From: Myxococcota bacterium
Lineage (GTDB): Bacteria; Myxococcota_C; UBA6777
Reading direction: 5' to 3'
NCBI GenBank assembly: GCA_023150835.1
Contig: JAKLKB010000182.1
Location: 1-9,266 of the forward strand
DNA length: 9,266 nt
Shown: positions 2,013 to 9,056 of the stretch, one piece after another
How positions within the stretch are numbered: position 1 is the first letter of the stretch
How the letters are laid out: each line of letters starts with the position of its first letter
Position numbers and translations under genes: made by a program
The notes under the pieces: model-generated
The model's input: the letters and a program-made list of their open reading frames with translations, nothing else
Databases searched by the model: none
What the model was told of the DNA's origin: nothing

Positions 2013-2087
2013 ATGATGCGGCCTATAGTGTGATCGCAAAGCGTAGGGGCATCCCCCTGTGGCTGCCCAACAATCGGGTGTCTACGC
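2013..2087. repeat. Dispersed hairpin repeat, copy A
   Basis: This segment shares an ordered set of blocks with 6997-7072: ATGAT, GTGTGATCGCAAA, AGGGGCA, TGTGGCTGCCCA and GTCTAC. It can fold: GCGTAG (2041-2046) pairs with CTACGC (2082-2087), and GGGCA (2047-2051) pairs with TGCCC (2064-2068). It lies just upstream of the minus-strand glycosyltransferase. No coding function is seen. It belongs in appearance to the GTAGGGGC class of short interspersed palindromic repeats; the class assignment is from memory. Confidence 0.6.
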
Positions 2088-2380
2088 ACTATCCTACGGG
2101 AACACATCACTCGGATATCGTATAAGCCTCGCGACGCATGATTACCGCCCCAAACCACGCAGGGTCAAGGGGCGACAGTCCGCGGCGAGGTGTGGCGCAT
2201 CACCTCGCACCCCAATCCAACAAGCCACTCCTATCCGATGAGGAACCCGAGAAGCCCCCGATGCCCTTCGATGTTCATACATCACGGCAGATTAACACCG
2301 CACACTCAAGATGAGCACGATACCGAACCCGCTCTTGACTTTGTTGATCTCCTCGGCTATACCGCAACCCAATGCGGTGA
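2088..2380. other. Non-coding stretch without a supportable gene
   Basis: No open frame here has a credible start, ribosome site or recognisable product. Two short overlapping frames (about 2160-2313 and 2278-2387) have protein-like wording but no start, and they shift phase near 2310, so at most they are remnants of an older gene. The stretch holds the stem-loop at 2169-2213 and, at its right end, ACCGCA/TGCGGT (2361-2378), which abuts the presumed left boundary of the ISC element. A short omega-RNA guide would be expected in the last 15-20 bases. Confidence 0.5.
2169..2213. repeat. Perfect 8-bp stem-loop with outer G/C arms
   Basis: GCGAGGTG (2185-2192) and CACCTCGC (2201-2208) are exact reverse complements around an 8-nt loop. 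An outer GGGG (2169-2172) can pair with CCCC (2210-2213) across a 5' bulge. There is no following T-tract, so it is not a classical terminator. It could be part of a structured RNA or a protein-binding palindrome. Confidence 0.55.
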
Positions 2381-2711
2381 TATCTAGCCAAACTTCGCAC
2401 CCTCATGTAAAGCTACGGAACCATGAGAGCTTCGTCAACGACCCGCCCCGACATGGAGCGGGCTTGCTTCGGTAAGCCCCGTTGACCCGCCCCAGAAGCC
2501 GAGGGAAACTTTGGTGGAGGAAACGTTGGGAGAGAATAGATAGGCATAGTCGGATGCTTCTCCAGTCCGATGCATCTGCGGGACACGCGGACAGTCCTTG
2601 GGTAAGGCTGCTTCGTGTCTTCAAAACCTCTCGTCCAACCGGGCCTTAAGAACTTGACCGAAACGCACGTTTCGAGAACACCCCGTCAATATGGGGAAAG
2701 GTAACGTCTTC
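2381..2711 (+). ncRNA. HEARO / IscB-associated omega-RNA
   Basis: A densely structured region abuts the IscB start, which is the known location of omega-RNA (first described as the HEARO RNA). Helices I can see are: CTCATG/CATGAG (2402-2407 with 2422-2427); GCTTC/GAAGC (2429-2433 with 2495-2499) enclosing GTCAACG/CGTTGAC (2434-2440 with 2480-2486); GGGCTTGC-TTCG-GTAAGCCC (2460-2479) with a UUCG tetraloop; GCAT+CGGA/TCCG+ATGC (2544-2573) with a 3-nt bulge; GACACG/CGTGTC (2582-2587 with 2614-2619) enclosing CAG+CCTT-GGGT-AAGG+CTG (2592-2610); CGAAAC/GTTTCG (2659-2674); and CCCC/GGGG (2681-2696). A family RNA would carry a short guide at its 5' end, copied from flanking DNA, and would load onto IscB. 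The 5' end is uncertain; nested pairing is solid from 2402. The 3' end may overlap the ribosome site of iscB. Confidence 0.85.
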
Positions 2712-3344
2712 ATGGCACTAAACAGAGTCCTCGTCTTGGACTTCAACCATCAACCCCTGATGCCTTGTCATCCTGCACGCGCTCGCCAACTGGCATTGCG
2801 AGAGCGGTTGTGTGGGTTGGTTGTACCGTTGGAAGTCGGCAGCGGGGGGCAAACGAAGTACAACCGCAGCCGACAAGAGTATCGGAAAACACATTGGCTG
2901 GATGCGGTGTGTGTGGGCGTGTCAGGAGAAAGAGTGTGCGTGGACTTCGCGCAAGAAGTGCTGGAGATCAGAGCGATGGGACGGGGAAGTCGGCAGAAGT
3001 GTAGCGTGGATCAGTACGGTTTGCGAAGCGCGAGACTCCCAAGGGTCGTCTTCCCCCGAACAGGGGCGAAAGCGAGACAGAAGAAAGTACACGGTTTTCA
3101 AACAGGAGACATGGTGGAAGCGGTGGTTCCGAAGGGAAAGAAAGCAGGCCGATACGTCGGACGGGTGGCGGTGCGAAGCACGGGCAGTTTCAACATCAAA
3201 ACCCGAAGTGGCGCCACACAAGGCATTTCTTACAAACATTGTCGTCTCCTTCAACACACCGATGGATACGCCTACACACGAAGACATGACGGCGCTTCCT
3301 CCCCCCTCGCCCATAAGGGGGCTTCCGCGCCGAAGAGACGGTGA
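2712..3344 (+). CDS. iscB: IscB-derived protein with in-frame deletion of the nuclease core
   Basis: The frame encodes 210 residues, against roughly 400-550 for IscB. Residues 6-27 are the N-terminal PLMP (RRXRR) module, with VLVLD and PLMPCHPARARQL. The protein then jumps directly to ALRERLCGL and PLEVGSGGQTKYNR (28-52), which in the family lies just after HNH. RuvC-III is present (KTHWLDA 59-65, His61 and Asp64). The C-terminal RNA/target-binding part follows, including GRGSRQKC, HGFQTGDMVEAVVPKGKK and NIKTRSGATQGI. RuvC-I, bridge helix, RuvC-II and HNH are all absent, so no complete nuclease site can form. The seam is near 2790-2795 and the frame stays open. The ATG at 2712 has AAAGG upstream (2697-2701); an in-frame ATG at 2691 falls in the last RNA hairpin. 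The last ~20 residues are translated from the right-end hairpin. It is either a decaying gene or a nuclease-dead omega-RNA binder; sequence alone does not decide. Confidence 0.88.
   Translation: MALNRVLVLDFNHQPLMPCHPARARQLALRERLCGLVVPLEVGSGGQTKYNRSRQEYRKTHWLDAVCVGVSGERVCVDFAQEVLEIRAMGRGSRQKCSVDQYGLRSARLPRVVFPRTGAKARQKKVHGFQTGDMVEAVVPKGKKAGRYVGRVAVRSTGSFNIKTRSGATQGISYKHCRLLQHTDGYAYTRRHDGASSPLAHKGASAPKRR
3291..3331. repeat. Right-end hairpin of the ISC element
   Basis: GGCGC (3291-3295) pairs with GCGCC (3327-3331), and CCCCC (within 3301-3306) pairs with GGGGG (3317-3321), with mismatched TTCCT/CTTCC between. Imperfect subterminal hairpins of this kind are typical of IS200/IS605-superfamily ends, where the transposase recognises them as single strands. 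Here it also encodes the C-terminal tail of the IscB-derived protein. Confidence 0.7.
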
Positions 3345-3506: not shown

Positions 3507-4292
3507 ATGATCGAGAGTCCACATTACAATTCAAATGATCCGATCGAGATCGCGCCCGGGGTGTTTCACCTCGGCGTGCAGGACGCGAGACACAGTTTTT
3601 CGAATATCCCTTACCTGATCGTCGATGGCGACGAAGCGCTGATCTTGGATCCCGGATCGGCAAAACCTGAGTTCTACGCGACCGTTTTGCGAAAAGTCCA
3701 AGCTGTTGTCGATCCAAAACAAATCAAATACATGGTCGTTCAACACCAAGATCCCGATCTGTGCGCGGCTCTGCCCCTTTTTGAAAAACTGGTGGATCCC
3801 GATGTGAAGATCCTTGCTCCTTTAGAGGCCCAAGTTCTGCTGCAACACTACGGATGCCAACATGATGTTTACCCCTTGGATGACGGCGACACCCTGACCA
3901 TGAAACATGGGAGAACACTTTCGTTTATCATGGTTCCTTATTGTCATTTTGTTGGTAATATGATCACTTATGACGCCCGAACCAAGCTACTTTTTAGCTC
4001 AGACGTCTTTGGGGGATTTACGGGAAAAAGTCTCTTGTATGCCGATGACGATTATCCCTTCCAACTGAAAGTGTTTCTCGGACAATACCTCGGCTCCAAA
4101 AGAGCCTTGGAATATGCCCTCAAACGCATCGAACTTCTCGACAAAACCGATGGAATCGAGATGATCTGTCCCCAGCATGGATGCCTGATCAAAAAAGAAC
4201 AGATCCCCATGTACCTCGAAGCCGGTCATCAGCTCGAAGTCGGCGGAGAAGTGGAAATGCTTGCCAAAAAATATGCAATTTGTTTGGATTGA
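3507..4292 (+). CDS. ODP-type metallo-beta-lactamase-fold di-iron protein
   Basis: This 261-residue soluble protein has the MBL fold used by flavodiiron proteins but no flavodoxin domain. Metal ligands are readable: His80-x-Asp82-x-Asp84 (HQDPD), His147 (PYCHFVGN), Asp166 (SSDVFGG) and His224 (CPQHG). The spacing (62 residues from Asp84 to His147, 18 to Asp166, then 57) fits the oxygen-binding di-iron protein pattern as I recall it, HxExDx62Hx18Dx60H, with Asp in place of Glu at 82. ODP proteins bind O2 at a di-iron centre and act as sensors or sinks, and some work in bacterial chemotaxis. The ATG at 3507 follows GGAGAG (3497-3502). The gene lies 47 nt upstream of a small ORF and then a cyclase carrying a hemerythrin domain, which supports a shared O2/NO role. 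A simple flavodiiron reductase lacking its flavin partner is the alternative. The ISC element ends about 165 nt upstream and may affect its promoter. Confidence 0.85.
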   Translation: MIESPHYNSNDPIEIAPGVFHLGVQDARHSFSNIPYLIVDGDEALILDPGSAKPEFYATVLRKVQAVVDPKQIKYMVVQHQDPDLCAALPLFEKLVDPDVKILAPLEAQVLLQHYGCQHDVYPLDDGDTLTMKHGRTLSFIMVPYCHFVGNMITYDARTKLLFSSDVFGGFTGKSLLYADDDYPFQLKVFLGQYLGSKRALEYALKRIELLDKTDGIEMICPQHGCLIKKEQIPMYLEAGHQLEVGGEVEMLAKKYAICLD

Positions 4293-4339
4293 AATTGGAA
4301 AAGAAAGGATATATGCTGAAAAATAAAGGAGAAATCAAC

Positions 4340-4612
4340 ATGGATGAAAAAGAAGTCATCGAATTGATCTTGATTACCGCTCTCAAACTGACCCAAGATG
4401 AAGAGAAATTGGTCACGTTGCTTACCGACACAGGCATCTCTTTAAACGAAGACTTGAGCCTCCATTCGATCGATGGCTTGCCAACGGAGGTTTTGAAAAA
4501 ATTAATGGTCAACCTAACGCAATTGCCTGTAGTAAAGATCAGCGCCAAGCAGATCATCCGCAAAAGTGGACTCACCACTCCCAACTCGCTTGGCAAGTCT
4601 TTCATCGTCTAA
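4340..4612 (+). CDS. Small orphan protein between ODP and cyclase genes
   Basis: This is a 90-residue protein I do not recognise. It starts MDEKEVIELILITALKLTQD, has a mixed acidic/leucine-rich helical first half, and ends KQIIRKSGLTTPNSLGKSF with a basic tail. There is no signal peptide, membrane segment or Cys motif. The ATG at 4340 has AAAGGAG 8 nt upstream; an in-frame ATG at 4313, also with an AAAGGA, would add nine residues. It is in the same direction as its neighbours, 47 nt after the ODP gene and 74 nt before the cyclase, so it is probably in the same operon. A small regulator or partner of the sensor cyclase is possible, but nothing in the sequence proves it. Confidence 0.65.
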   Translation: MDEKEVIELILITALKLTQDEEKLVTLLTDTGISLNEDLSLHSIDGLPTEVLKKLMVNLTQLPVVKISAKQIIRKSGLTTPNSLGKSFIV

Positions 4613-4676
4613 GAGAATCTCGCAACCGTGATAGAGTCCCACAGGGCGATCTCTTTCAGCAAGTCTTTACGTCGCG

Positions 4677-4682
4677 TAGGAG
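4677..4682 (+). promoter_or_regulatory. Ribosome binding site deciding a TTG start
   Basis: TAGGAG sits four bases before the TTG at 4687. The next in-frame ATG is codon 53, inside the second HAMP-like repeat, so the TTG is the only start that keeps the repeat array whole. Confidence 0.6.
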
Positions 4683-4686
4683 AACC

Positions 4687-6978
4687 TTGTCACACAACTC
4701 TCCAGTCCATCCATCGGAACAAACACTCGATCAGCGGATCAAGGAAGCGCTCGCCCTCGCAAGAGGCGATTTGTCCGTGACTATCGTTCCTCATGCAGCG
4801 GATGACGAACTCGGCCACGCGCTCAAGAAGATCGCCGAATCGATGAGAAACAAAGCAACAGTCATCGAATTGATTGCAGGGGGAGTTCTGTCCACACAAG
4901 CCGAACTGGCTTCGGAGGATGATAATCTAGGAAAAACCATCAACAGGATGGCAAAATCTCTGAAAGACAAGATCCAGCTTACAGAAACCGTTGAAAAGGG
5001 GGAGTTGTCGTACAACATCGAATTGGCTTCGGAGTCAGACGAACTCGGCAAGGCTTTACAAAACATGGTCGCCTCGCTTCAAAGCAAACTGGAGGTGCTC
5101 GAAGCCATCGCCTTGGGGGATATGTCGATGGAGGTCGAACTGGTTTCCCCCGACGATGAACTTGGTTTGGCCTTCCAAGCGATGCTCCAAGTCCTTCGGA
5201 GTAAAGTTGCTCTTGCCGAGTCCATCGCACGAGGGGATCTGTCGAAGAAATTATTACTCGTTTCCGAAGCCGACGAGTTGGGCAAAGCGCTACAGGCGAT
5301 GGTTGCTTCGCTTCAAAGCAAGCTGGAAGTGTTGGAAGCCATCGCTTTGGGAGATATGTCGGTGGAAGTCGAGCTTGTTTCTGAGGACGATGAGCTGGGT
5401 TTGGCTCTGCAAGCGATGCTCGAAGTTCTCAAGAATAAAGTGTCTCTTGCGGAGTCCATCGCTCGGGGCGATTTGTCCACCGAATTAAGATTGGCTTCCG
5501 AGCAGGATTTTTTGGGCTTGGCTCTGCTGAAAACGCGAGAGTCCTTAAAAAATAAAGCGAAACTCGCTCAAGCCATCGCCAAAGGCGATTTTTCCATGAA
5601 GGTTCAACTTGCCTCCAAGTCCGATGAATTAGGAAAATCACTTCAAATTATGGCGGACAGCTTGGCCACCATGCAAGAAGCCGTCGCCCAAAAAATGAAA
5701 GAAAAATCAACGATCATCGAGATCTTTGAAAAATTTGTTCCCAAACAATTCTTGAACAGGATCGCGATCGAGGGCTTAGAAAAAATTCAATTAGGGAGTG
5801 CTGAGAGCGATAACATTACCATTCTTTTTTCTGATATCCGTTCGTTTACGACATTGTCTGAAAATTTAGCACCACAGGATCTGCTCGACTTACTGAACGC
5901 TTATTTTAAAAGGATGAATCAGCCGATCTACGACAACGGCGGCTTTGTCGATAAATTTATTGGCGATGGCATTATGGCGTTGTTTACCCATCATGGTATC
6001 TCCAAAGCCGACGAAGCGCGAAACGCGATCAAAGCGGCCATCGGGATGCAAAAAGCATTGCAGGACTTTAACGAAAATCATCCACCTCTGGGCGCTGCCC
6101 CCCTCCAGATGGGGATCGGTGTGCATACAGGTTTTGTGGTGATCGGAACGGTCGGTTCGGAAGATCGGATGGATTCGACGGTGCTTGGGGATGCCGTCAA
6201 CATCGCTGCTCGGCTAGAGGGGCTGACGAAACTTTATCAAGCTTCGATTTTGATCAGCAGCAACACCTTTTTTCTTCTCGATAATCCCAACGAATTTTCG
6301 ATGCGATTTATTGACCGTGTGACTGTCAAAGGCAAAACAGACGCGATCTCCGTCTTTGAAGTGTTCGATGCGGATTCCCCCCACATCCGCGAACGTAAAT
6401 TCAAAACCAAACATGCCCTAGAAGACGCCATCTCTTTGTTTTATTTGAAGCAATTCGACAAAGCGCATACACTTCTTGATCAGTGTTTGTCTTTATTTCC
6501 TCAAGACAAAACCGCTCAATTATACAAAGAACGATGCGAAGAAATGCTGCTTGCGACCGAAAAGCACGAAAAGGAGCCTCTCTCGTGGAGAGCGAACTGG
6601 ATGATCGGCGTGGATGTGCTGGATCAACAGCATGAAGAGCTGTTTCGTCGGATCAATACGCTATTTAAAGCCATCGAACATGGAAACAATCAAGAGGTGA
6701 TCAAAGTCGTTCAGTTTTTGGAAGAGTATGTCTTGTATCATTTCGAGGAAGAAGAGCGGCTGATGCTGGAATATGGATATCCAGAGTATTCGTTTCACTT
6801 GTCCCAACATCACCGATTTATCGAAGATTTCAAAAGTTTGAAAAGAGAGTGCGAATCTAAGGGCAGCAGTTTTCATTTGGCCCTGCGCACGCAATGTCAA
6901 GTGGTCGATTGGATGATCCACCATATCGCCAAAACCGATCGGAAGCTAGGAAAATACTTGAACGGAAAACTGCGGTAG
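4687..6978 (+). CDS. Poly-HAMP class III adenylate cyclase with TPR and hemerythrin domains
   Basis: This is a 763-residue protein with no membrane segment, so probably cytoplasmic. Residues 15-326 are eight gapless 39-residue HAMP-like repeats (GDLS-type turns at 27, 66, 105, 144, 183, 222, 261 and 300, each followed by DELG). A linker with EIFEKFVPKQFL (345-356), common before cyclase domains, leads to a class III catalytic domain (about 376-560). Metal Asp383 (FSDIRSFT) and Asp427 (FIGDG), adenine-selecting Lys423 and Asp502, and transition-state Asn505 and Arg509 are all present, so it should make cAMP from ATP. A TPR-like pair of helices (577-620) precedes a C-terminal hemerythrin (634-763) with all seven iron ligands: His649, His685, Glu689, His704, His708, His746 and Asp751. 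O2 or NO at the di-iron site probably controls cyclase output. It is the last gene of the ODP/orphan/cyclase run. It starts at TTG with TAGGAG. The class and ligands are certain; the signal sensed is inferred. Confidence 0.93.
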   Translation: MSHNSPVHPSEQTLDQRIKEALALARGDLSVTIVPHAADDELGHALKKIAESMRNKATVIELIAGGVLSTQAELASEDDNLGKTINRMAKSLKDKIQLTETVEKGELSYNIELASESDELGKALQNMVASLQSKLEVLEAIALGDMSMEVELVSPDDELGLAFQAMLQVLRSKVALAESIARGDLSKKLLLVSEADELGKALQAMVASLQSKLEVLEAIALGDMSVEVELVSEDDELGLALQAMLEVLKNKVSLAESIARGDLSTELRLASEQDFLGLALLKTRESLKNKAKLAQAIAKGDFSMKVQLASKSDELGKSLQIMADSLATMQEAVAQKMKEKSTIIEIFEKFVPKQFLNRIAIEGLEKIQLGSAESDNITILFSDIRSFTTLSENLAPQDLLDLLNAYFKRMNQPIYDNGGFVDKFIGDGIMALFTHHGISKADEARNAIKAAIGMQKALQDFNENHPPLGAAPLQMGIGVHTGFVVIGTVGSEDRMDSTVLGDAVNIAARLEGLTKLYQASILISSNTFFLLDNPNEFSMRFIDRVTVKGKTDAISVFEVFDADSPHIRERKFKTKHALEDAISLFYLKQFDKAHTLLDQCLSLFPQDKTAQLYKERCEEMLLATEKHEKEPLSWRANWMIGVDVLDQQHEELFRRINTLFKAIEHGNNQEVIKVVQFLEEYVLYHFEEEERLMLEYGYPEYSFHLSQHHRFIEDFKSLKRECESKGSSFHLALRTQCQVVDWMIHHIAKTDRKLGKYLNGKLR
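4729..5664 (+). repeat. Eight 117-bp tandem units (39-residue HAMP-like repeats)
   Basis: The spacing is exactly 39 codons over eight units with no insertions. Units 4-5 and 6-7 form a 234-bp higher-order duplication: residues 129-206 and 207-284 share LQSKLEVLEAIALGDMS and LAESIARGDLS blocks nearly unchanged. This means the array grew partly by doubling a two-unit block. Confidence 0.9.
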
Positions 6979-6992
6979 GACCGACTCAACAG

Positions 6993-7005
6993 CGATATGA
7001 TATCG
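6993..7005. repeat. Palindrome after the cyclase stop
   Basis: CGATAT-G-ATATCG is a perfect palindrome with a one-base centre, 15 nt after the cyclase stop codon and next to repeat copy B. It could be an operator or chance; no T-tract follows. Confidence 0.35.
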
Positions 7006-7101
7006 GCCCGTTGTGTGATCGCAAAACACAGGGGCAGACAGGTGTGGCTGCCCACACCAAAGGGCGTCTACAGCGGAGCGCACCACTCCTTCGTGTGCGC
7101 T
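6997..7101. repeat. Dispersed hairpin repeat, copy B, with two perfect stem-loops
   Basis: It matches copy A (2013-2087) in ordered blocks up to about 7072. GGTGTGG-CTGC-CCACACC (7041-7058) is a perfect 7-bp hairpin, and AGCGCAC/GTGCGCT (7077-7083 with 7095-7101) is another. It fills most of the 222-nt gap between the cyclase and lipoprotein genes and could end or process the upstream transcript, though no U-run follows either stem. Confidence 0.6.
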
Positions 7102-7200: not shown

Positions 7201-8145
7201 ATGAAGCAAAGAAACATTCGCTTGTTGACGGTTTTTTGGGGTTTGGGGCTGCTCGTTCTTGGAGTTGCCCATTGTGGAAGGGGCGGAGGCATCGACGATA
7301 AAATCACGTCTGCGGATGCCCAAGCCGCTTATGTCGGACAAGATCTGACCCAAGTCCTCAGCGTCAGTATGGAAGCCTATATCGCACCGACAAGCAGCGC
7401 ACTCGAATACGAGTTTGGTGGTCGTCCCCAACTTCCCGAAGGCTACGCAACGATCCACTCCGCGCTCACCGAAGAGCAAATGAACAAGGTTGTCAGCGAA
7501 GTCAAAACGCAGCTAGACAAATCAACCAGTTCCACCAGCGGCTGTGTCGCGGTCGCTCCCATCGACAGCAACTCGCTCAAGATCACATTCACCAATTGCG
7601 CTTTTGGGCAGATCAAAGTCAGCGGTAGCATGACCTGCGCTTTTGCCTTTGAGCGGGTGAAGCGAGAATTGCTCGTGACGGTCACTTTCGCCGACTTTAC
7701 GGTCAACGGGCGCAAAGTGGAAGGTACACTCAAAGTCGCCGTTGGTATCGCCAACAAAACCGAATTGAAACTCGCGACCGAAGGCTCTTTGAAAGTCACC
7801 ACCAAAGAAAACAAGACCGCTGAATTGCAACTGAACGCAACGGTTGCTCTCTCCCCCCAAAAAGAGACCATGACCCTCAACGGTACCGGCACCGTGAACT
7901 ACGACGAAACCTCCTACAACATCACTGCCAAAGACGTTGTCGTCAAGTTCGGCGATGGTGCCCCGTCTTCGGGCAGCGTGAGTGTCACTTTTAAATCTGG
8001 AAAACTTCAAACCACCAACACCGTCGAGATCGTCTTTAGCTCAGAAACTGTGACAAGCGGCAAAGTCGAAGTCAAAGTGAACGGAAAATCTGTGGGGATG
8101 ATGACTTCAGAAGAACTTCTCGCTCTCCTCAAAAGGGGTGTTTAA
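7201..8145 (+). CDS. Putative beta-rich secreted lipoprotein
   Basis: This 314-residue protein starts with a basic, then hydrophobic leader (KQRNIRLLTVFWGLGLLVLGV) ending at VAHC (22-25), a lipobox-like site with an unusual His at -1, so lipidation is likely but not certain. A short Gly/Asp linker follows, then an alternating-residue, beta-strand-rich body. Cys115, Cys133 (TNCAFG) and Cys146 sit in a GC...NC..G...SG pattern that I associate with envelope lipoproteins of unknown function. The body has repeating strands such as KVEGTLKV, LATEGSLKVTT and LQLNATVAL, consistent with a barrel or sandwich. The C-terminus KVEVKVNGKSVGMMT is duplicated downstream at 8808. The ATG at 7201 follows GAGGGAG; a longer start at 6997 would place the leader internally and is rejected. 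No family assigned. Confidence 0.75.
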   Translation: MKQRNIRLLTVFWGLGLLVLGVAHCGRGGGIDDKITSADAQAAYVGQDLTQVLSVSMEAYIAPTSSALEYEFGGRPQLPEGYATIHSALTEEQMNKVVSEVKTQLDKSTSSTSGCVAVAPIDSNSLKITFTNCAFGQIKVSGSMTCAFAFERVKRELLVTVTFADFTVNGRKVEGTLKVAVGIANKTELKLATEGSLKVTTKENKTAELQLNATVALSPQKETMTLNGTGTVNYDETSYNITAKDVVVKFGDGAPSSGSVSVTFKSGKLQTTNTVEIVFSSETVTSGKVEVKVNGKSVGMMTSEELLALLKRGV

Positions 8146-8230
8146 TCAACTGATGACAAAATTTCGCATCAAACACAAGACGATAGGAGGCCGATATGCT
8201 TATCGTGACTATCGAAGAGGCACAATCTAA
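8062..8230 (+). repeat. Direct repeat, copy 1 (lipoprotein tail to antitoxin start)
   Basis: This segment covers the last 27 or so codons of the lipoprotein gene, the spacer and the first codons of the antitoxin. It recurs at 8808-9056. The first 45 bases (8062-8106) are identical to 8808-8852, so the duplication is recent or under constraint. Confidence 0.85.
8185..8190 (+). promoter_or_regulatory. Strong ribosome binding site of the antitoxin
   Basis: AGGAGG lies 5 nt before the ATG at 8196. The equivalent position in the second copy reads AGAAAG, which explains why that copy is probably not translated. Confidence 0.7.
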
Positions 8231-8426
8231 GTTATCCGAATTAATCGATGGTTTGGCGAACGGAGAAGAATTGGTGATCGTTCGTAACAAGCAACCGATT
8301 GCCCGCTTGTTGGCTGAAGCGAAGCCTGAGCGCCAGCCTCGCAAAGCGGGAAGCGCGAAAGGAATGCTCGCCATCTTGACCGAAGATCACGAGCATCTCG
8401 ATGGGTTTGCGGAGTATATGGAATGA
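8196..8426 (+). CDS. Phd/YefM-family antitoxin
   Basis: This 76-residue protein has the Phd/YefM N-terminal DNA-binding fold: MLIVTIEEAQSKLSELID (1-18) and GEELVIVRNKQPIARLL (23-39), followed by a short, charged C-terminal tail rich in Lys, Glu and His that should wrap around and neutralise the toxin. Antitoxins of this family also repress their own operon, usually by binding a palindrome at the promoter; none is obvious in the 50-nt spacer after the lipoprotein gene. Its stop overlaps the toxin start in ATGA (8423-8426), typical of translational coupling. A Phd-type antitoxin with a PIN toxin is a known combination. Its first codons recur in a decayed copy at 9022. Confidence 0.92.
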   Translation: MLIVTIEEAQSKLSELIDGLANGEELVIVRNKQPIARLLAEAKPERQPRKAGSAKGMLAILTEDHEHLDGFAEYME

Positions 8427-8809
8427 GAGTGCTGCTTGATACGCATACGTTCTTGTGGTTTGTCCTCGACGATCCTCAATTGAGTTCGACAGCCAAGATT
8501 CTCATCCAAGACTCGGCCAACGATGTAGAAGTCAGTCCTGCAAGTTACTGGGAGATCGCCATCAAGATTAGACTCGGTAAGTATGTTCTGTCGCAACCGT
8601 ACCAATCGTTCATGGAAACACAGATCGCAGCGAACGACTTCCGCGTGTTGCCCATCGAACCTAGACACACGGCGTTGCTCACCACGATGCCATTCCATCA
8701 CAAAGACCCATTCGATCGGTTGCTTGTCGCTCAAGCCCTGAACGAGGACATCCCCATCATCAGCGTCGATGTTCAATTCGATTCTTATGGTGTGAAAAGG
8801 CTATGGTAA
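8423..8809 (+). CDS. vapC: PIN-domain ribonuclease toxin (VapC-like)
   Basis: This is a 128-residue single PIN domain, the usual VapC length. The acidic metal ligands are readable: Asp6 (LLDTHTFLW), Glu44 (SYWEIAIK), Asp98 (KDPFDRLLVAQA) and Asp116 (SVDVQFDSYGV). The DTHTFLW opening and HKDPFDRLL block place it in the subfamily often paired with Phd-type antitoxins. It should cut RNA with Mg2+ or Mn2+ and inhibit growth when free of antitoxin; the RNA target cannot be told. It starts within the antitoxin stop codon. Its own stop, TAA at 8807-8809, overlaps the first codon of the duplicated lipoprotein tail, so the gene ends exactly at the repeat seam. Confidence 0.92.
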   Translation: MRVLLDTHTFLWFVLDDPQLSSTAKILIQDSANDVEVSPASYWEIAIKIRLGKYVLSQPYQSFMETQIAANDFRVLPIEPRHTALLTTMPFHHKDPFDRLLVAQALNEDIPIISVDVQFDSYGVKRLW

Positions 8810-8888
8810 AGTCGAAGTCAAAGTGAACGGAAAATCTGTGGGGATGATGACTCCAGAACAGCTTCTCGCTTTCCTCAAAATAACGTAA
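8808..8888 (+). pseudogene. Second copy of the lipoprotein 3' end
   Basis: These 26 codons plus TAA encode KVEVKVNGKSVGMMTPEQLL and then AFLKIT, matching the lipoprotein end (residues 288 onward) with only a few replacements: S to P, E to Q, L to F, and a different last few residues. No start or upstream body remains, because the toxin gene occupies that position. It is a fragment from a tandem duplication or from a lost paralogous gene. Confidence 0.85.
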
Positions 8889-8891
8889 TCG

Positions 8892-8910
8892 CAGCGTTGT
8901 GGGAACGCTG
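8892..8910 (+). terminator. Possible weak terminator hairpin
   Basis: CAGCGTT-GTGGG-AACGCTG is a perfect 7-bp stem with a 5-nt loop, about 80 nt after the toxin stop. The following GTGTTTGG is only weakly T-rich, so termination is uncertain. This lies in DNA that separates the two conserved blocks of copy 2 and is absent from copy 1. Confidence 0.35.
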
Positions 8911-9021
8911 GTGTTTGGCTTCGCGCTTATTTACCTTCTGGGGGCTTAACGGGTGTGAGATGCTTGAGCGATCAATCACAGAATTTTGCACCAAACACAA
9001 ACAAGACGACAGAAAGCCAGC

Positions 9022-9056
9022 ATGCTTATCGTGACCATCCAAGAAGCGCAATCTAA
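9022..9056 (+). pseudogene. Truncated second antitoxin copy
   Basis: The ATG at 9022 begins MLIVTIQEAQS, matching the intact antitoxin MLIVTIEEAQS. Similarity ends after about 11 codons at 9056, and the frame then runs into unrelated repeat sequence and stops at 9144. The ribosome site is degraded (AGAAAG for AGGAGG). No toxin follows. It is a remnant, not a functional gene. Confidence 0.85.

What the first reader, a model, noticed from the sequence alone, without database searches (positions are those of the whole stretch)
2712..3344. IscB stripped of its nuclease core but still open and RNA-linked
The frame joins the N-terminal PLMP module (residues 6-27) directly to the post-HNH segment, RuvC-III and the C-terminal RNA/target-binding region, deleting RuvC-I, bridge helix, RuvC-II and HNH in one in-frame step near 2790-2795. 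About 210 codons remain open, with a plausible ribosome site and start. Known relatives lose one nuclease domain (IsrB lacks HNH; IshB lacks RuvC); losing nearly both while keeping the ends and the omega-RNA is unusual. It could be a naturally dead RNA-guided DNA binder acting as a local repressor, or an internally deleted relic.
Basis: partly seen in the sequence, partly recalled or inferred. Interest (0 to 1): 0.85.

Follow-up and report, generated by a model that had tools for sequence, protein, structure and literature searches.

The report
Internally deleted, decaying IscB element
This short gene is what remains of an RNA-guided DNA-cutting enzyme (IscB) after a 756-base hole opened in the mobile element carrying it; the remnant exists in a few copies in one Myxococcota genome and is mutating freely like a dead gene, so it is most likely an ordinary transposon relic and not a natural RNA-guided switch.

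Summary
Window 2712-3341 fuses the first 27 residues of an IscB to everything from just after HNH (RuvC-III, WED, TAM-interacting barrel), behind a HEARO/omega-RNA. It lies in a mobile element with sharp ends (2434-3344). The genome also holds a full-length IscB (C226; 252 residues are missing here) and two more copies of the same seam (C171 intact, C225 5'-truncated), so it is not an assembly artefact. The sister species has an independent in-frame deletion (seam C).

The dead-binder reading is not supported. Changes private to deleted copies are 19 replacement to 5 silent, the neutral proportion; full-length copies show 8 to 19 (Fisher p = 6e-4). The intact-looking second copy has lost near-invariant residues. 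The omega-RNA block conserved in full-length copies and in at least 58 of 68 distant loci (CRARG) reads CCTTA in all three deleted copies that retain it. The seam also halves the PLMP domain, and only the C-terminal barrel is predicted to fold confidently. The C-terminal half is a patch nearly identical to full-length C226, which makes naive dN/dS (0.29) misleading.

Verdict: a non-autonomous, internally deleted derivative, comparable to PATEs/MITEs of IS605.

The parts
2434..3344 (+). Whole element (911 bp), from left end GTCAACGACC to right end CG(A/G)TGA
   Evidence: LE and RE junctions identical in 13 LE and more than 20 RE examples from two genomes, with unrelated flanks; homology to all other copies starts at 2434 and stops at 3344/5
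2414..2433 (+). Flank that would be the guide segment of the omega-RNA (TACGGAACCATGAGAGCTTC)
   Evidence: Sequence upstream of LE differs in every copy; no other match with fewer than 3 mismatches in own or sister genome
2434..2711 (+). HEARO/omega-RNA and leader; covariance-model match 2434-2658
   Evidence: RF02033 61.1 bits, E 4e-12; full-length copies 71-97 bits
2644..2648 (+). Degenerate conserved omega-RNA block: CCTTA where full-length copies have CAAGG
   Evidence: CRARG found in 58 of 68 IscB loci from viral contigs and in all full-length copies of the family; CCTTA in C135, C171 and C68
2712..3344 (+). Deleted iscB ORF, 210 codons plus stop
   Evidence: alignments
2712..2788 (+). 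First half of the PLMP domain (residues 1-26), including motif PLMP (residues 15-18)
   Evidence: RRXRR match to model positions 1-23 of 174; model residues 1-20 pLDDT about 45-51
2789..2792 (+). Deletion seam A with ACTG microhomology; 252 codons missing relative to C226
   Evidence: same seam in C171 and C225
2889..2906 (+). RuvC-III remnant THWLDA (H and D retained; RuvC-I and RuvC-II partners deleted)
   Evidence: Alignment to IscBs; catalytic set described in PMC9640706
2944..3295 (+). Conversion/recombination tract almost identical to full-length C226 (8 differences in about 360)
3111..3287 (+). TAM-interacting beta-barrel, the only confidently folded part (pLDDT mostly 94-96)
   Evidence: control
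3276..3344 (+). Right end (hairpin CCCCC...GGGGG, terminal CGGTGA; consensus CGATGA); encodes the last ~20 residues and the stop

Best explanation
The locus is a non-autonomous, internally deleted copy of an IscB-bearing (ISC / IS200-IS605-like) mobile element. Shown: a full-length copy lost 756 bp between two ACTG tetranucleotides; the deletion happened to be in frame; the deleted form is present at three sites in this genome. Inferred: it spread as a mobile element, because the cis-acting ends (LE with omega-RNA, RE) were kept and could be served in trans. Shown: copies exchange sequence, and the C-terminal half of the window copy is a recent patch shared with full-length C226. Shown: deleted copies accumulate amino-acid changes at the neutral rate, and a block of their omega-RNA that is conserved in IscB elements is substituted. 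Inferred: the 210-residue ORF is an untended leftover that makes no working RNA-guided complex; its omega-RNA, if transcribed, would have been used (if at all) by a full-length IscB in trans.
For: Element with sharp ends and many insertions. Same seam at three loci, C135, C171, C225, against full-length C226 and C172. Other derivatives: C68 (2706-2902 missing), C151 fragment, sister-species G001:C14 with its own in-frame seam (residues 28|55) at the site where the window genome has full-length C172 (same 3' flank and same 410-codon downstream ORF). Private coding changes 5 silent: 19 replacement in deleted copies (neutral expectation 0.69-0.74 replacement) versus 19:8 in full-length copies, Fisher p = 6e-4; the two intact-looking seam copies alone 2:9, p = 0.005. 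C171 carries R52G and L84P, C68 D133G, at positions nearly invariant or invariant in about 40 diverse IscBs. omega-RNA block CRARG changed to CCTTA in C135, C171, C68. PLMP strands lost, N-terminus unfolded in the model, pTM 0.53 against 0.77 for a full-length control. Repeat-mediated core deletion is the described origin of PATEs from IS605-type elements (PMC3119063).
Against: Window and C171 ORFs are both open with no frameshift, although at this divergence few disabling hits are expected (probability of no stop about 0.6-0.7 after 8-12 neutral changes). Three junctions (seam A, seam C, C151) are in frame, which by chance has p about 0.04 if taken alone. The window copy itself has only 4 private coding changes in the tested region (2 silent, 2 replacement), so its own selection state is hardly measured. 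Only weak Y1-transposase hits were found in the genome, so the trans-acting helper was not identified.
Confidence: 0.87

Rival explanations
1. A naturally nuclease-dead, RNA-guided DNA binder (analogue of the TnpB-derived repressors TldR): the PLMP piece, RuvC-III, WED and TI parts plus omega-RNA bind DNA and repress a local or distant gene.
For: ORF open in two copies; start, ribosome site and omega-RNA adjacent; TAM-interacting barrel predicted to fold; naive C135-C171 omega 0.29.
Against: The 0.29 is produced by the patch shared with full-length C226; branch-private changes are neutral; near-invariant residues lost in C171; omega-RNA block lost; PLMP halved, although deleting PLMP abolishes IsrB nicking (PMC9581776); bridge helix, which contacts guide adaptor and nexus (PMC9640706), absent; guide flank without target at 0-2 mismatches; absent from the other held genomes of the phylum and no seam-spanning match among the 40 plasmid records listed of 56.
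Confidence: 0.04
2. A non-autonomous element kept for its omega-RNA: the protein is junk, but the omega-RNA guides full-length IscB (C226 or C172) in trans to protect the donor site, as reported for standalone omega-RNAs.
For: HEARO structure mostly retained; full-length IscBs present in the genome; standalone omega-RNAs work with IscB in trans (stated in PMC9581776); different guide-position flanks in every copy.
Against: Conserved CRARG block lost in the three deleted copies that retain this region; HEARO score lowest of the complete copies scanned (61 against 71-97).
Confidence: 0.07
3. Assembly collapse or chimera: the genome has a full-length gene here and the seam is a short-read artefact between repeats.
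For: Repeat family with many contig ends inside copies; draft assembly of 239 contigs.
Against: Same seam on three contigs whose copies differ by 7-11% around it, so it cannot be one mis-join; the window contig runs through the element with unique flanks on both sides.
Confidence: 0.02

Closest known systems
IscB / HEARO elements (ISC group; RF02033 + NF040563)
   Same: Same ends, omega-RNA position, start, N-terminal 27 residues and C-terminal ~183 residues; full-length sister copies in the same genome
   Different: 252 internal residues deleted (rest of PLMP, RuvC-I, bridge helix, RuvC-II, HNH); omega-RNA block degenerate; neutral evolution
PATEs / core-deleted IS605-type elements (Haloquadratum, PMC3119063; Halanaerobium, PMC7290912)
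   Same: Transposase-free derivatives with both ends retained, produced by repeat-mediated core deletion, several deletion types side by side
   Different: Here the parent carries iscB and omega-RNA instead of tnpB, the deletion is partial and leaves a long open frame
IsrB (RuvC + bridge helix, no HNH)
   Same: Short OMEGA protein with PLMP and TI regions
   Different: IsrB keeps whole PLMP, RuvC-I/II/III and bridge helix and is an active nickase; this protein keeps only RuvC-III
TldR (nuclease-dead TnpB-derived repressors)
   Same: Would be the functional analogue if the dead-binder reading were true
   Different: Different nuclease family; TldRs are described RNA-guided transcription factors (PMC13418256), whereas no conserved target or selection is seen here

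Membership tests
IscB (functional RNA-guided nuclease) | Complete PLMP, RuvC-I/II/III, bridge helix and HNH | tested here: not met
   252 residues between residue 27 and residue 279 of C226 missing; NF040563 51 bits against cut-off 175
IscB (functional RNA-guided nuclease) | HEARO/omega-RNA upstream with intact conserved core | tested here: inconclusive
   HEARO 61 bits, E 4e-12, below gathering score 83; CRARG block replaced by CCTTA
ISC/IS605-like mobile element derivative | Precise shared ends with unrelated flanks, several copies | tested here: met
ISC/IS605-like mobile element derivative | Transposition by Y1 TnpA in trans | tested here: inconclusive
   Only weak partial PF01797 hits in own genome, assembly 93% complete
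PATE/MITE-like non-autonomous element | Both ends kept, core deleted at a short repeat, no transposase, more than one copy | tested here: met
   ACTG microhomology, copies C135, C171, C225; the PATE palindromic ends were not compared in detail
Nuclease-dead RNA-guided regulator (TldR-like) | Purifying selection on the protein | tested here: not met
   5 silent: 19 replacement private changes, neutral expectation 69-74% replacement
Nuclease-dead RNA-guided regulator (TldR-like) | Guide matching a host target | tested here: not met
   Only 3-mismatch hits, about the chance level
Nuclease-dead RNA-guided regulator (TldR-like) | RNA and DNA binding, repression | not testable with these tools
   Needs experiment
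IsrB | RuvC-I/II/III and bridge helix without HNH | tested here: not met
   RuvC-I, bridge helix and RuvC-II are deleted

The most novel reading that the evidence does not exclude
A minimal IscB descendant reduced to a PLMP fragment, RuvC-III, WED and TI barrel that, with its omega-RNA, binds DNA without cutting and acts as a regulator or as a competitor of the full-length IscB in the same cell. The window copy alone has too few private changes to exclude this.
Probability: 0.04. Interest if true: 0.85.

Novelty: new member of a known kind. Interest (0 to 1): 0.22.

Why it matters
If it were a functional dead binder it would be a second natural route, beside TldR, from transposon nuclease to RNA-guided regulator. 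As a relic it is still useful: it documents how IscB elements decay (microhomology deletion, spread of the deleted form, patching from intact copies), and it shows how exchange with intact copies can make a dead OMEGA gene look selected (naive omega 0.29), a trap for scans looking for natural dead nucleases.

Tried and rejected
Searching for the seam outside the genome: the order, class and phylum searches all returned the same five held genomes, a genome-contig scan returned only the sister Myxococcota MAG, and a plasmid tblastn showed only matches beginning at residue 35 or later in the rows listed (40 of 56 records); no further seam-A copies. Empty insertion site: the downstream ODP gene has no E<=1e-30 homologue in the other four genomes and the upstream flank only matches a dispersed repeat, so no empty site could be compared. 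A first protein alignment for folding mis-registered the N-terminus and was replaced by fragments; as a result the N-terminal 27 residues had almost no alignment depth and their low pLDDT is only suggestive. The fold search gave low TM-scores, with OMEGA proteins IsrB/IscB on top. Assembly artefact was considered and rejected (three contigs with the seam). The original ISC and OMEGA papers are not held.

Full report
WHAT IS THERE. It matches the last 42 positions of the NCBIfam IscB model and the first 23 positions of Pfam RRXRR, with nothing between. Compared with the full-length IscB of the same genome (contig C226, 458 aa, with RuvC, bridge helix and HNH regions present), residue 27 of the window protein continues at residue 279: 252 residues, 756 bp, are missing. 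The junction has a four-base microhomology, ACTG, present on both sides in C226. Upstream lies an omega-RNA: HEARO RF02033, 2434-2658, E 4e-12, 61 bits, under the curated 83.

THE ELEMENT. Copies found in this genome and in a sister-species genome (a Myxococcota MAG) begin at GTCAACGACC and end at CGATGA (CGGTGA in the window), with unrelated sequence outside; 13 left and more than 20 right junctions were read. The window copy is therefore a 911-bp element, 2434-3344. The last ~20 codons and the stop are part of the right end, and the start codon and ribosome site are those of the full-length gene. The 'plausible start' is inherited, not evidence of a maintained gene.

COPIES. In the window's genome: full-length C226 and C172; seam A (this finding) at C135 (window), C171 and, 5'-truncated, C225; C68 with a different deletion (2706-2902 missing); fragment C151; several contig-end pieces. 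In the sister genome, contig C14 carries another in-frame internal deletion (residues 28|55) in front of the same downstream DNA that follows full-length C172. Deletion derivatives thus arise repeatedly; seam A arose once, by the parsimonious reading, and is now present at three places. Three contigs with the same seam and 7-11% divergence around it exclude an assembly collapse.

MOSAICISM. Identity along the copies is patchy. The omega-RNA and PLMP part of the window copy is about 97% identical to C171 and C68; just after the seam it is closest to C225; from about 2944 to 3295 it is 98% identical to full-length C226 and only about 82-88% to the other deleted copies of the genome; the right end is again closest to C171/C68. 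This is gene conversion or recombination among copies (the direction is not proven). It matters because the plain comparison of window and C171 gives dN/dS 0.29, which looks like selection but is inherited from divergence between full-length donors (C226 versus C172: 0.21).

SELECTION. To avoid this, only changes private to one copy were counted in 2790-3300. Deleted copies (C135, C171, C225, C68): 5 silent, 19 replacement, 79% replacement against a neutral expectation of 69-74%. Full-length copies (C226, C172): 19 silent, 8 replacement. Fisher p = 6e-4; restricting to the two intact-looking seam-A copies, 2:9 against 19:8, p = 0.005; leaving out the clustered C225/C226 right-end codons, p = 9e-4. 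C171 has replaced R52 and L84, and C68 D133, which are nearly invariant or invariant across about 40 diverse IscBs. The window copy itself contributes only 2:2, so its own state is inferred from its family.

THE RNA. All full-length members here have CAAGG after the last pseudoknot strand, and 58 of 68 IscB loci from viral contigs have CRARG at that place (several of the remaining ten carry a near variant). C135, C171 and C68 have CCTTA, and the sister-species deleted copy has CTAGG. The conserved block was lost in the deleted lineage, which argues against an RNA-linked function.

STRUCTURE. Published work defines PLMP as residues 1-59 in DtIsrB, packing on RuvC and TI and contacting the 3' hairpins of the RNA; removing PLMP or the last TI strand abolishes nicking (PMC9581776). 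In OgeuIscB the bridge helix recognises the guide adaptor and nexus (PMC9640706). Both the second half of PLMP and the bridge helix are gone. AlphaFold2 folds a full-length viral-contig IscB well (pLDDT 84, pTM 0.77, PLMP strands at 2-41). In the window protein the TI barrel (residues ~134-192, blocks mostly at pLDDT 94-96) is the only region folded with high confidence into a sheet, the first 20 residues are near or below 51 with no strand, and pTM is 0.53. The N-terminus had little alignment depth, so that part is suggestive only.

GUIDE. The 20 nt in front of the left end have no other match with up to 2 mismatches in either genome; the single 3-mismatch matches are at chance level. No sign of a conserved target.

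MECHANISM, WITH STATUS. Shown: deletion between microhomologies in a full-length copy, three sites with the same seam, exchange with full-length copies, neutral amino-acid change, degenerate RNA block. Inferred: transposition in trans by a TnpA-type helper (only weak Y1 hits were found), no working protein. This parallels core-deleted IS605 elements and PATEs (PMC3119063, PMC7290912), here with iscB and omega-RNA as cargo.

VERDICT. The anatomy is real and unusual at first sight, but the evidence points to a decaying non-autonomous IscB element. The dead-binder reading is left at about 4%, because the window copy alone is too young to test.

Noticed in passing
window 3507-6978: Directly downstream: an ODP-family di-iron protein (PF19583), a small ORF, and a soluble protein with repeated HAMP units (234-nt repeats at 4978 and 5212), an adenylyl/guanylyl cyclase domain, TPR and C-terminal hemerythrin; looks like an oxygen-sensing cyclic-nucleotide module.
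   Followed up: no
window 2019-2121 and 7004-7093: Dispersed ~100-bp repeat (GTGTGATCGCAAA..GGGGCA..GTGGCTGCCCA) with 354 first-look candidates in the sister genome, and short tandem copies spaced 34 nt at the end of contig C172.
   Followed up: no
window 8059-9056: Phd/PIN toxin-antitoxin pair (8196-8809) bracketed by repeats: 8059-8134 recurs at 8805-8880 (93%) and 8170-8230 at 8996-9056 (80%), as if a module was duplicated or inserted.
   Followed up: no
L013/L031/L064 (G001:C14) versus L035/L072 (G000:C172): The same insertion site (by 3' flank) carries full-length iscB in one species and an internally deleted in-frame copy in the sister species; the 5' flanks differ, so a rearrangement is also possible.
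   Followed up: partly
L036, C225:36681-36859: The right end is present twice in tandem behind the 5'-truncated seam-A copy.
   Followed up: no
L084 (G000:C193:34279-35535): A second, distant IscB (37% identity) shares the left- and right-end sequences of this family, suggesting one transposition machinery serves several IscB subfamilies.
   Followed up: no
seam A, seam C, C151 junction: Three of three internal junctions inside the coding region are in frame (chance about 0.04); unexplained, small sample.
   Followed up: partly
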